35,935 nucleotides of DNA from an uncultured Bacilli bacterium (GTDB lineage: Bacteria; Bacillota_I; Bacilli_A; RF39; UBA660), in contig CANRFG010000012.1 of the NCBI GenBank assembly GCA_947629815.1, positions 1 through 35,935 on the forward strand. The letters are read 5' to 3'. The notes beneath the pieces were generated by a model that was not told the DNA's origin, ran no database searches, and saw only the letters and a program-made list of their open reading frames with translations. How positions within the stretch are numbered: position 1 is the stretch's first letter; each line of letters begins with the position of its first letter. Of this stretch, positions 30,997-35,706 are shown piece after piece. The position numbers and the translations under genes are program-made.

Positions 30997-31022
30997 TTAA
31001 AAAAAGATGATTTCTCATCTTT
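30997..31022 (-). terminator. Terminator of spoIVA
   Basis: AAAGATGA (31003-31010), loop TTTC and TCATCTTT (31015-31022) are followed by a T run on the minus strand. Confidence 0.75.
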
Positions 31023-32145
31023 ATAAAACAATTGCGAATAAATTACCTGACCCTTTATTAACTAATTTTGATAATGTTGTTTGAAGTTTATGTCTAGCAT
31101 TTTCTGGTAATAAAGATAATTTAGCTTGTATTCCTTCTTTTACTATGACATCTAAACTTCTTCCAAATATTTCACTTTTCCAAATAGTATCTGGTTCTGT
31201 ATCAGAATCTTTCATTAAATAATTTATAAGTTCTTTACTTTGTATTTCAGAACCTATTATTGGTTCAAATGTTGATTCTACATCTACTCTAATCATATGT
31301 ATTGAAGGTGCTACTGCCTTTAACTTAACTCCAAATCTTCCACCTTGTTTTATTACTTCTGGTGTATCTAATTTCATATCAGCTAAACTTGGTGAGGCAA
31401 CACCATAACCTGTTGCCTTAACCATTTTAAGTGCATCTTTTATTTGGTCATATTCTTTCTTAGCTTCTTCATAATCTTGGAATAGTTTAAGTAATTGACT
31501 TTTACTATTTATATCTATTCCTATTATATCTTTAAGTACTTGATTATATAATCCATCTGGGCATTCTAAATTTACTGTAACTATTCCTGTTGATGTGTCT
31601 ACATCTGATAAATATGCCTTTTTTATATACTCACAATCATTGAAATGGTCTGTTATTGTATCGATATCTTTTAATTTATCAATTTCAATAACACTTTCTC
31701 TTATTTTTTCAATATATATTTTTTTAAGCCAATTATTAGATGATAAACATGCTATCCAATCAGGCATATTAACTTTAACTTCCAATACAGGAAATTCATA
31801 TAATGCACTTTTTAATATAGAGTACATATCTCTTTCTGACATATCCTCAACACTTATAGGTATAACAGGAACATCGTATACATTAGTTAAATTTTGTGAT
31901 AAATTTTGTGTTTCTGGATTAGTTGGGTGTGTTGAATTTAAAATCATTATAAATGGTTTACCTATTTCTTTTAATTCAGATACTATTCTTTCTTCTGCTT
32001 CTACATAATTTTCTCTATCGATTTCACCAATAGAGCCATCTGTAGTTACTACTATACCTATAGTGGAATGGTCTTTTATAACTTTATTTGTTCCAATCTC
32101 TGCTGCTTCCACGAATGGTATTTGTTCATCGTACCACCATAACAT
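31021..32145 (-). pseudogene. spoIVA: SpoIVA, C-terminal part; N-terminus replaced by element
   Basis: SpoIVA is the ATPase that polymerises on the forespore surface to build the base layer of the spore coat. The 374-residue frame matches the family from WYDEQIPFVEAAEIGTNKVI to the conserved end GSGNLFAIVL, which corresponds to about residue 121 onward of the 492-residue B. subtilis protein. The missing 120 residues hold the Walker A motif (GxxxTGKST) and Walker B region, so this piece alone could not hydrolyse ATP. The first ATG (32145) has no ribosome binding site, and the open frame continues upstream through GYHEN into the recombinase end. The body has no stops or frameshifts, so the break is recent or the gene is still under selection (for example restored by excision). 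Confidence 0.9.
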
Positions 32146-32168
32146 GTTTTCGTGATACCCATAAATTT
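32145..32168. repeat. Candidate attachment site (left), at the spoIVA break
   Basis: TGTTTTCGTGATACCCATAA (32145-32164) and the next bases match 35683-35706 with only scattered differences (for example G/A at the 8th and C/T at the 14th base). It starts at the point where SpoIVA homology ends and lies about 40 nt from the recombinase stop codon. On the minus strand it encodes YGYHEN. Confidence 0.55.
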
Positions 32169-32204
32169 TTTTAAAAATTGCTCCAAAGCAACTCGTATTT
32201 TTAC

Positions 32205-33791
32205 TTATACTAATACTTCACTTTTTTTAATTCTATAATGAATTTCTAGTTTTTTATCCTTTGTAACATATATCTTATCTATTAATCTATTCATTATTTC
32301 TCTTGTTGGATTTTTCATATCAAGAAAACTTTTAATTATATCTAAATATTCAACATAACAAGAGGAATCTTCATTTATGCTAGAAATTTCTTCTTTCAAT
32401 TTTTCTAATTTTTCGTTTGCAGTTTTAATATCTTCTTCAGTAATTTTAAATAATCTTTGATAAGTTTCCACACTTATAATATTATTAAACTTATCATCAT
32501 ATAAAGAGTCTTGTTTTCTTTTTAATCCATCTATCTTTAAATTAAGTTCATCAATTTTTTTTAATTTTTCTTGTTTAGGATCAATATATTGATTTTTGAT
32601 AATACTCTCAAATTCGTCTTTATCATTAATATATAGATTAGCCATAGTGCTTAATTTACTATAGATAGTATTTTCCAACTTAGTATAATTAATATAATGT
32701 GAAAAACATATATTATACTTACTAAACTTACGATAATTATTACAATTCATTGTAACTCTATCTCTTTTTTTATCATAGCTAATACTCATTCTAGCACCAC
32801 AATCTTTACAAAATACTAAATCAGATAAAACATAATCAACATTTCTTCTTTCAGGATTATAGTTATCCTTAGAATCTTTAATAGATTGCGCTATTTCAAA
32901 TGTTTTTTTATCAATAAGTGGTTCATGGGCATTTTCCTTTATACACCACTCACTTTTTGGAACTTTTTTCATCTTCTTAATCTTATAATTCACTTTTTGA
33001 ACTCTGTGTTGTATTAAATCTCCAATATAGACTCTATTTTTTATTATATTACTAACAGATGTATGTTTCCATATTTCAGGATGGTCAAAGTTATTTAATT
33101 TAGAATCAGAGTATTTATACATAATAGGTGTTGGTAATTCTTCTCTTGTTAAGATTTCAGCAATTTGTGAACTACCATAACCAGCAACATATAAATCAAA
33201 TATCTTCTTTACTACAGGAGCAGTTTCTGGATCTGGCACCAGTTTGTGTTTGTCTAAAAGATTTCTCATATACCCATAAGGCGCTGCACTTCCACAAAAC
33301 TTACCATCTTTTTTCATTTGAATTAAGCTTGAACGAACTTTTTTTGAAATATCTTTTGCATACATATCATTCATACTTAGTCTAAATGGCATCATATCAG
33401 AACCACTTGTTTCATAAAAAGTATCTATATCATCATTTACTGCAACATATCTGACATCATTCTTTGGAAAAAATGTTTCAACATAATAACCTGTCATTAT
33501 ATGATCACGACCTAATCTTGATAAGTCTTTTGTTATAACCATATTTATTTTTCCATTTTCAATGTCATTTAACATTCTCTTAAACTCTGGGCGTTCAAAA
33601 TTTGTTCCTGTATAACCATCATCTACATAAATATCAACTGCAACTAAATTCTGTGCTTTTAAATAACCAATTAGTAAACTTCTTTGATTAGTGACACTTT
33701 CTGATTCCATATCATCACCATCTTCACGAGATAGTCTTATATAAATGGCTATTTTAAAAATCGTATTGTCTATTTTGTATCTATTATACAT
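32205..33791 (-). CDS. Large serine recombinase (integrase of the element)
   Basis: The 528-residue product has the catalytic resolvase domain (about 12-155) with nucleophile Ser21 in YIRLSREDGDD, QRSLL, and KDLSRLGRD. The recombinase domain follows (about 170-310, PYGYMRN...), then a zinc ribbon with Cys328, Cys331, Cys350 and Cys362, and a C-terminal coiled coil (about 385-490). This is the architecture of phage and transposon large serine integrases that insert and excise DNA at short att sites. The start has AAGGAGA 5 nt upstream, inside the end of the 60-residue gene, so translation is coupled. Its 3' end points at the broken spoIVA. A directionality factor is not recognised. Confidence 0.96.
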   Translation of the reverse strand: MYNRYKIDNTIFKIAIYIRLSREDGDDMESESVTNQRSLLIGYLKAQNLVAVDIYVDDGYTGTNFERPEFKRMLNDIENGKINMVITKDLSRLGRDHIMTGYYVETFFPKNDVRYVAVNDDIDTFYETSGSDMMPFRLSMNDMYAKDISKKVRSSLIQMKKDGKFCGSAAPYGYMRNLLDKHKLVPDPETAPVVKKIFDLYVAGYGSSQIAEILTREELPTPIMYKYSDSKLNNFDHPEIWKHTSVSNIIKNRVYIGDLIQHRVQKVNYKIKKMKKVPKSEWCIKENAHEPLIDKKTFEIAQSIKDSKDNYNPERRNVDYVLSDLVFCKDCGARMSISYDKKRDRVTMNCNNYRKFSKYNICFSHYINYTKLENTIYSKLSTMANLYINDKDEFESIIKNQYIDPKQEKLKKIDELNLKIDGLKRKQDSLYDDKFNNIISVETYQRLFKITEEDIKTANEKLEKLKEEISSINEDSSCYVEYLDIIKSFLDMKNPTREIMNRLIDKIYVTKDKKLEIHYRIKKSEVLV

Positions 33792-33793
33792 TT

Positions 33794-33976
33794 TTATCTC
33801 CTTTCAGTAGACAACACTTTCACTTTATTAGTTGAATCAATTATACCATTTTTTTTGTTCGTTTTAAATACTTTTAATGAATTTTTATTAGCCATATAGT
33901 ATTTATATATACAACTTTTTAATACTTCTTTTAAATCACAACCATTATCATCATAAAATTCTATTGTGTCATACAT
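33794..33976 (-). CDS. Small protein coupled to the recombinase
   Basis: The product is 60 residues, with an acidic start (MYDTIEFYDDNGCDLKEVL) and a basic second half (KNSLKVFKTNKKNG...STERR). No known family is recognised. It is too short for the usual transposon TnpV-type protein. GGAGG lies 7 nt before the start. It stops 2 nt before the recombinase ATG, and the recombinase ribosome binding site is within its last codons, so the two are co-translated. A role as an excision helper or regulator is possible but is only suggested by position. Confidence 0.7.
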   Translation of the reverse strand: MYDTIEFYDDNGCDLKEVLKSCIYKYYMANKNSLKVFKTNKKNGIIDSTNKVKVLSTERR

Positions 33977-33978
33977 GA

Positions 33979-34035
33979 TTATTCCTCCACAATGAATTCT
34001 ATGTGTAATAGTTTATAAAAATTACTATTCTTCAT
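33979..34035 (-). CDS. 18-residue ORF leading the recombinase genes
   Basis: This tiny frame is MKNSNFYKLLHIEFIVEE. AAAGGTG lies 8 nt before its ATG, and its stop is 2 nt before the ATG of the 60-residue gene, whose GGAGG site it contains. It looks like a leader peptide that couples translation downstream. An even shorter frame, MKNILFNAEELD, lies just upstream. It may also be the remnant of a longer gene. Confidence 0.4.
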   Translation of the reverse strand: MKNSNFYKLLHIEFIVEE

Positions 34036-34398: not shown

Positions 34399-35451
34399 TC
34401 AATTATTCCATTTATATTTTGTATACCTACCACCAGAGATTTTAACAATTTTATCTTCTTTAAGTAATTTATTTAGCATTCTTTCAATTGTGGTTTCACT
34501 TAAATTAGGACACTTATTAATTATAAACGCTTTATCTATTGGAATAATATTTTCTTTAAATATACCTATAATTCTATCATAAGCAGTTATTTTTTTATTT
34601 TCAACAATATTTATTCTTGAATCAAATTCCTTATAAGCATTTAATATTATTCCTAAATAGTATTCTACAAAATATGAATAATCATTTTCATTATCATGCC
34701 ATTCAACAGAACTTTTTTCTAATGTATCATAATAACTATCTTTTGTTTCTTCAATAATTTTTTCAATACTGATATACTTCCCTACCATATAATCTGCTTT
34801 ATATAGTAATAGTAGAGTAAGTAATCTACTCATTCTTCCGTTACCATCATTAAATGGGTGTATAGATAAGAAATCTAATATAAATATAGGAACTAAGACT
34901 AGTAAATCACATGAATCGTTATTAACTAATTCATTATAATTTTTACATAAATCTTCAATTGCAATTGGTGTTTCAACAGGAGATAGAGGTATAAATCTTA
35001 TTTTCTTTTCTCCTTTTTCATTTTCTTCTTCAATATAATTTTGAGAATTTTTAAATTTACCACCATAACTATAGCCTGTATATTTATATAAATCTCTATG
35101 TAATTGCAAAATTGTATTTTGATTAATATCGATAAAATTGTAGTTCTCATGAATTAAAGATAATACATCTCTATAACCAGCAATTTCTTCTTCATTTCTA
35201 TTTTTAGGTTCTAACTTTTTAGTTACAATTTCATTAATTCTTTTATCAGTAGTACAAATACCCTCAATTTTATTTGATGAAGAAGTACTCTCTATTTTAG
35301 CAACTTTTAATAAAGTATCTAAAGTATCTTTTTTAGTATTTAATAAATATGATTGTTTTCCTTTGTATTCATGTATTTTACTTATTAAATTAATGATATT
35401 ACCACTAGATATAATACTATTATATTCTTCCATTAAATTAAATTTTCTCAA
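34399..35451 (-). CDS. Fic/DOC-family protein with wHTH, self-inhibited
   Basis: Fic proteins transfer AMP (or other groups) from nucleotides to hydroxyls on target proteins. The 350-residue product has the catalytic motif HPFNDGNGR at 198-206 (HPFx[D/E]GNGR complete). An inhibitory helix motif, S59-x3-E63-G64 (SNKIEG), precedes it, which marks a class II Fic whose activity is blocked in cis until regulated. About residues 285-350 form a winged-helix domain (IDKAFIINKCPNLSETTIERMLNKLLKED), suggesting DNA binding. It starts with TTG at 35451 behind GAGGA; the first in-frame ATG (35433) has a poorer site. The promoter carries three TGATGCAA boxes, so autoregulation is likely. It lies between the two candidate att sites. 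Confidence 0.92.
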   Translation of the reverse strand: MRKFNLMEEYNSIISSGNIINLISKIHEYKGKQSYLLNTKKDTLDTLLKVAKIESTSSSNKIEGICTTDKRINEIVTKKLEPKNRNEEEIAGYRDVLSLIHENYNFIDINQNTILQLHRDLYKYTGYSYGGKFKNSQNYIEEENEKGEKKIRFIPLSPVETPIAIEDLCKNYNELVNNDSCDLLVLVPIFILDFLSIHPFNDGNGRMSRLLTLLLLYKADYMVGKYISIEKIIEETKDSYYDTLEKSSVEWHDNENDYSYFVEYYLGIILNAYKEFDSRINIVENKKITAYDRIIGIFKENIIPIDKAFIINKCPNLSETTIERMLNKLLKEDKIVKISGGRYTKYKWNN

Positions 35452-35524: not shown

Positions 35525-35682
35525 AAATTAGCATTATTAATTATATGCAATATTACAATTTTTAAACAATATATGACTCTTTACATAAGTCTTACATACT
35601 AAACATAAAGTTTTTTATTATAATTACAATATTTTCTTATTTTTAGTTTTAAGTATCACTTATTCAACAATAACCAATACTC

Positions 35683-35706
35683 TGTTTTCATGATATCCAT
35701 AAGTCT
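35683..35706. repeat. Candidate attachment site (right)
   Basis: TGTTTTCATGATATCCATAA (35683-35702) and the next bases are the imperfect copy of 32145-32168. On the minus strand it lies in a 24-codon frame (35660-35734) that reads MKLVEKGFLKTYGYHENRVL, then VIVE; YGYHEN is shared with the left copy. No ribosome binding site precedes that frame, so I do not call it a gene. The 158 bp between here and the fic operators hold nothing I can name. Confidence 0.5.

What the first reader, a model, noticed from the sequence alone, without database searches (positions are those of the whole stretch)
31021..33791. spoIVA cut by a serine-recombinase element: possible skin-like developmental insertion
The frame matches SpoIVA from about residue 121 to its end and is otherwise intact, but the Walker A/B ATPase part is gone and a large serine recombinase, in the same direction, ends 60 nt away. 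Other sporulation genes (sigK, spoVFB, spsM) are known to be interrupted by recombinase elements that excise in the mother cell to restore the gene. I do not know of such an element in spoIVA. The clean remaining frame and spoIVA terminator would fit a gene that is still used after excision. Simple inactivation is the dull alternative.
Basis: partly seen in the sequence, partly recalled or inferred. Interest (0 to 1): 0.85.

Follow-up and report, generated by a model that had tools for sequence, protein, structure and literature searches.

The report
Mobile elements splitting sporulation gene spoIVA
In a group of uncultured gut bacteria, a family of small mobile DNA elements repeatedly inserts at exactly the same codon of spoIVA, a gene needed to build spores, and probably cuts itself out again in the mother cell during spore formation so that the gene is rejoined.

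Summary
spoIVA is cut exactly at its Trp121 codon (TGG): the C-terminal half lies in the window beside a large serine recombinase, and the missing N-terminal half, with the P-loop, is on another contig. There is no intact second copy; Spo0A, sigma-E/G/K-like factors and a SpoIIID homologue are present. A sister species has the gene intact at this codon. Among 386 genomes of the family, about 21 (18 genera) carry such an element at this codon, with inverted GGTATCAC/GTGATACC arms. One monophyletic recombinase clade is dedicated to the site (27 of 27 testable loci). Each recombinase follows a conserved small ORF, and in 24 of 25 elements scored its upstream promoter matches the family's own spoIVA (sigma-E-type) promoters. 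Some assemblies break exactly at the TGG core. A second, unrelated recombinase group cuts spoIVA near codon 400; one genome has both cuts. [quoted passage not shown] Excision itself is not shown, and the insertions are young, so intact halves do not prove continued use.

The parts
31021..32133 (-). spoIVA C-terminal half, codon 122 to stop
   Evidence: TIGR02836 526 bits, PF09547 positions 122-237, PF20438, PF20439
32134..32136 (-). attachment core TGG (Trp121 codon), in attR
   Evidence: Shared by N-half end on C38 (TGG at L004 855-857) and by all site-A relatives
32152..32159 (-). attR right arm GGTATCAC, inverted relative to the left arm GTGATACC that follows the N-half on C38
   Evidence: Sequence; conserved in relatives
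32205..33791 (-). large serine recombinase, 528 aa
   Evidence: PF00239, PF07508, PF13408; monophyletic spoIVA-dedicated clade
33794..33976 (-). conserved small ORF (60 aa) directly upstream of the recombinase; candidate directionality factor or partner
   Evidence: Present before every recombinase of the clade; no Pfam, PHROGs or NCBIfam hit
33994..34027 (-). sigma-E-type promoter: -35 TAGTAAT (34021-34027), 15 nt, -10 CACATAGAATTC (33994-34005)
   Evidence: Matrix trained on 70 spoIVA promoters, score 12.3, p 0.007
34399..35451 (-). Fic-domain protein, cargo shared with other elements
   Evidence: PF02661; 92% identical in the G354 element
35652..35697 (-). internal attP-like site (right arm - TGG - left arm); probable junction of two tandem elements
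   Evidence: Pattern scan; homology just inside it to the left end of the G354 element; tandem reading is inference

Best explanation
spoIVA is interrupted at codon 121 by a site-specific mobile element of integrative-mobilizable type. SHOWN from sequence: precise TGG core, inverted arms, dedicated recombinase with a co-conserved small ORF, recurrence at the same codon in about 18 genera, halves that read in frame across the core, and a promoter on the small-ORF/recombinase operon of the same type as spoIVA's own. INFERRED: in the mother cell sigma-E switches on both spoIVA and this operon; the recombinase excises the element as a circle at TGG, restoring RMVKTPW-YDEQIPF, and full-length SpoIVA is made there. 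The forespore copy keeps the element, so it is inherited through spores. The small ORF is the likely switch or partner, as the sigma-E-controlled 72-aa CD1234 is for C. difficile skin (PMC5025042), although the Tn4451-type relatives excise without such a factor (PMC5704250).
For: Two halves, no intact copy. Identical core and arms at codon 121 in many genera. Sister species contiguous at the codon with the same flanks. Collinear halves 3.6-13.8 kb apart on one contig in five genomes. 27 of 27 testable recombinases of the clade adjoin the codon-121 half, none of 49 more distant ones does; clade support 1.0. Spo0A, sigma-E/G/K-like and SpoIIID-like genes present. spoIVA-type promoter before the small ORF in 24 of 25 elements, rare before other ORFs. 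Assembly breaks exactly at the core, and element plus intact gene in one MAG. No stop in any interrupted half.
Against: No excised junction or circle was seen directly, and no host is known to have been grown. Recombinases are far less diverged than host spoIVA, so insertions are young and open halves are expected even without use. Co-existing forms could be strain mixture. In type-1 elements, the window's included, the -35 box is weaker. Codon-400 elements lack the promoter. The halves in the window's own genome are on different contigs with an unassembled gap.
Confidence: 0.75

Rival explanations
1. The element uses spoIVA only as a conserved landing site. Carriers are sporulation-negative, excision serves only transfer, and insertions persist briefly before loss.
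For: Patchy distribution: sisters G001 and G002 are intact. Recombinases much younger than hosts. A relaxase gene in G354 suggests transfer.
Against: A spoIVA-type promoter is kept upstream of the excision operon across elements whose recombinases have diverged to about 65% identity. Sporulation regulators are intact in the carriers tested. Two unrelated element groups choose the same sporulation gene.
Confidence: 0.2
2. The two halves are expressed as separate polypeptides that work together, and the element is fixed.
For: Both halves are open frames.
Against: The break falls inside the ATPase domain. The sequence before the C-half belongs to the element and shows no conserved start.
Confidence: 0.03
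3. Assembly or binning artefact joining a foreign recombinase to spoIVA.
For: The genome is a fragmented MAG and the halves are on different contigs.
Against: The same junction occurs in many independent assemblies, several with both halves on one contig.
Confidence: 0.02

Closest known systems
skin element in sigK of Clostridioides difficile and Bacillus subtilis
   Same: Large serine recombinase element splits a sporulation gene; in C. difficile a small (72 aa) sigma-E-controlled protein encoded in the element directs excision in the mother cell (PMC5025042)
   Different: Target is spoIVA, an early structural gene; the element looks mobilizable, not phage-like; the small ORF lies directly upstream of the recombinase
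gin element in gerE of Bacillus cereus ATCC10987
   Same: Non-phage intervening element with serine recombinases, excised during sporulation (PMC5595907)
   Different: Different gene; gin is 28.6 kb with three recombinases; here one recombinase and elements of 3.6-13.8 kb
vfbin (spoVFB), SPbeta (spsM) and yin (yabG) elements
   Same: Elements interrupting other sporulation genes; yin was seen both integrated and as an excised circle (PMC10747680)
   Different: Described as prophage or prophage-like; single strains or species rather than one clade across many genera
TndX / TnpX (Tn5397, Tn4451) recombinases
   Same: Nearest named recombinases, about 35% identity to TndX and TnpX best in PDB; a relaxase in the larger element
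   Different: Those are transposon recombinases not tied to one sporulation gene; TnpX needs no extra factor for excision (PMC5704250)
XisF of the fdxN element of heterocystous cyanobacteria
   Same: Best curated profile (104 bits); developmental, gene-restoring excision
   Different: Far below the family cut-off of 375 bits; unrelated host and development

Membership tests
Sporulation gene-intervening (skin-like) element | Splits a sporulation gene at a precise attachment core | tested here: met
   TGG core with inverted arms in all relatives compared
Sporulation gene-intervening (skin-like) element | Encodes its own site-specific recombinase near one end | tested here: met
Sporulation gene-intervening (skin-like) element | Halves are collinear and removal restores the reading frame | tested here: met
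   Five genomes with both halves on one contig; in-frame across TGG and contiguous in sister G001. In the window's own genome the gap is not assembled
Sporulation gene-intervening (skin-like) element | Mother-cell (sigma-E/K) control of the recombinase or its partner | tested here: inconclusive
   Promoter match to spoIVA promoters in 24 of 25 elements; no expression data
Sporulation gene-intervening (skin-like) element | Excision occurs during sporulation | not testable with these tools
   Only indirect signs from assembly breaks
Integrative and mobilizable element | Carries a relaxase but no full conjugation machinery | tested here: inconclusive
   Mob_Pre relaxase in the G354 element; smaller elements and the assembled part of the window's element lack it
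Prophage | Phage structural genes | tested here: not met
   None among the ORFs examined in complete elements; no close relative in viral or phage collections
TndX/TnpX-type large serine recombinase | Resolvase + Recombinase + zinc ribbon domains | tested here: met
   for nearest relatives

The most novel reading that the evidence does not exclude
spoIVA is a recombination hub in this gut family: two unrelated recombinase lineages have settled at two codons (121 and about 400). The codon-121 family is wired to sigma-E, so SpoIVA, the base layer of the coat, can be built only after DNA rearrangement, and one genome (G385) would need two separate excisions to make one SpoIVA.
Probability: 0.35. 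Interest if true: 0.9.

Novelty: new variant of a known kind. Interest (0 to 1): 0.78.

Why it matters
The interrupted sporulation genes listed in the literature (sigK, spsM, spoVFB, gerE, yabG; PMC10747680) are late regulators or late-acting genes. spoIVA is a sigma-E-stage structural gene required for resistant spores (PMC11076785). A whole clade of recombinases dedicated to one codon of it, across many genera of uncultured small-genome gut bacteria, suggests that developmental DNA excision is common in the gut rather than a curiosity of a few cultured strains. It also gives an indirect argument that these organisms still sporulate, and supplies a set of related recombinases with a defined 3-nt core.

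Tried and rejected
Contig C44, first thought to be part of the element, carries a different recombinase and relaxase. dN/dS of interrupted spoIVA is low (about 0.03 to sister G001), but recombinases are much younger than host divergence, so this is not proof of use since insertion. The attP pattern in viral contigs gave four chance matches without a recombinase. Viral, plasmid and phage searches gave nothing above about 37% identity in viral contigs and nothing close elsewhere. AlphaFold of the small ORF: pLDDT 67, one reliable helix, so no fold search was made. One alignment call failed for wrong coordinates. A phylum sample showed no comparable codon-121 split outside the family. Literature searches found no report of an interrupted spoIVA; the library is partial.

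Full report
CHECK. The window is contig C12 of a 1.14-Mb, 46-contig genome (93.8% complete). On the minus strand, ORF 31021-32145 matches SpoIVA (TIGR02836) from position 121/122 to 492, and the recombinase ORF 32205-33791 ends 59 nt before it. A search of the whole genome gave exactly two SpoIVA matches: this one and C38:852-1217, positions 1-123, with the P-loop. So the missing N-terminus exists, on another contig, and no intact copy was found.

JUNCTIONS. Read in spoIVA direction, the N-half ends GTA AAA ACG CCT TGG, followed by GTGATGTTGAATAAGTGATACC; the C-half TAC GAT GAA is preceded by GGTATCACGAAAACATGTTATGG and then TGG. The core is the Trp121 codon, flanked on the element side by inverted arms GGTATCAC / GTGATACC. 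Crossover within TGG gives RMVKTPW-YDEQIPF in frame. In sister species G001 the N-part (98.3% identical) and C-part (95.9%) are contiguous at this codon, with the same flanking genes: YsxC, Der and two small ORFs upstream; metallophosphatase, HU and CCA-adding enzyme downstream.

RECURRENCE. In a sample of 386 genomes of the same family, 341 have a spoIVA match. By my count about 21 of them, in about 18 genera, have element arms at this same codon, and four more have contigs that break exactly there. Five have both halves on one contig in the same direction, 3.6 to 13.8 kb apart. Two arm types share the same end motif and core. A scan of GTDB contigs found 31 recombinases at about 58% identity or more to the window's. 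All 27 with sequence beyond the core have the codon-121 half directly downstream; of the other four, two contigs end at the core itself and two are cut inside the recombinase. None of the 49 at or below 44% is followed by it. The spoIVA group is monophyletic with support 1.0. Record titles are mostly gut and rumen MAGs of uncultured Bacilli; one contig is labelled Tissierellia (L154), possibly misbinned. A phylum sample showed no comparable codon-121 split outside the family.

OPERON AND PROMOTER. Every recombinase of the clade whose upstream sequence is held is preceded by a small ORF (mostly 40-76 aa; 34 aa in L154) with the motif MYxxxEFY...DLK..LKSCIYxYY, unknown to Pfam, PHROGs and NCBIfam. 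A promoter matrix trained only on 70 spoIVA upstream regions of the family (-35 about TTGTtAT, spacing 14-15, -10 about CATAnnnTT) finds a match 17-22 nt before the small ORF in 24 of 25 elements. Scores are 7.4-17.9 (training mean 15.7) against shuffled means of about -1 to 3. For the window the score is 12.3, p 0.007 from 300 shuffles. The one failure is the outlier L154. Of 423 control ORFs, 36 score 12 or more, and most of those are spoIVA itself. SpoIVA is made under sigma-E in B. subtilis and C. difficile (PMC11076785), so this is a sigma-E-type promoter by analogy.

NATURE OF THE ELEMENT. Complete elements carry no phage structural genes among the ORFs examined. The smallest (G277, 3.6 kb) has an AAA_14/DUF4143 ATPase, the small ORF and the recombinase. 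The 13.8-kb one (G354) has a Mob_Pre relaxase, a replication-initiator-like HTH protein and regulators. The nearest named recombinases are TndX (35%) and TnpX, from transposons; the best curated profile is XisF of the cyanobacterial fdxN element, well below its cut-off. The window's element has Fic, the small ORF and the recombinase, plus an internal attP-like site at 35652-35697; C38 holds the left end with the 342-aa ORF seen in G354. This suggests two elements in tandem, the second a 3.5-kb deletion derivative. That is inference, because the gap between C38 and C12 is not assembled.

IS IT STILL USED? For: no stop in any interrupted half; Spo0A, sigma-E/G/K-like and SpoIIID-like genes in the window's genome (SpoIIID is below its curated cut-off). 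Contigs of G004, G231, G331 and L146 break exactly at TGG. In G181 the empty-junction contig overlaps the C-half contig by exactly 141 nt starting at TGG, which is what a k=141 assembly graph gives when two different sequences enter at TGG. G010 has intact spoIVA and a separate element contig 98.5% identical to that of G415. These suggest that empty and filled sites co-exist in samples, but strain mixture would do the same. Against a strong claim: in closely related pairs the recombinases are nearly identical while spoIVA has diverged (e.g. recombinase dS 0.003, spoIVA dS 0.335), so insertions are young and open frames are expected even without use. The best argument for developmental excision is therefore the promoter, kept over deep divergence of the elements themselves.

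A SECOND SITE. In six genomes spoIVA is cut near codon 400 (shared core CATAT by inspection). The recombinases seen there in five of these genomes are only about 24-26% identical to the window's. G385 has both cuts. These elements also have a small upstream ORF but no matching promoter at the threshold used.

VERDICT. It is a new element family and a new target gene within the known class of sporulation gene-intervening elements. Excision in the mother cell is the most likely mechanism (0.75) but is untested.

Noticed in passing
L069 and L070 (G385), L071, L104-L111: spoIVA is also cut near codon 400 by elements with an unrelated recombinase; G385 has both cuts, so its spoIVA is in three pieces.
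   Followed up: partly
L173, L185, L187-L190, L198, L200, L201, L169: Related recombinases (about 41% identity) end a few nt before a LysM-domain gene that lacks its own start (YIKxVSGDTLW...); possibly another gene targeted at a conserved motif.
   Followed up: partly
L112 4684-6300 (G001, sister species): A Fic gene 97% identical to the window's cargo lies just downstream of the intact spoIVA, reversed, between two copies of about 25 bp of the spoIVA 3' end.
   Followed up: partly
L209 7554-7650 (G221:C129): An 80-nt spoIVA fragment with a left arm sits inside a rearranged element fragment, while the genome has an intact spoIVA elsewhere.
   Followed up: partly
G000:C9:791-1567, C9:31451-32221, C29:697-1461: Sigma-70-like domains inside very long open frames (433-707 aa).
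   Followed up: no
G199:C45:8587-8955 and C21:1-357: sigK-like gene split over two contigs with a 24-codon overlap; could be a contig fork at an insertion in sigK.
   Followed up: no
L222 (G000:C44): Another mobile element in the same genome: a 599-aa serine recombinase followed by a relaxase-like gene.
   Followed up: partly
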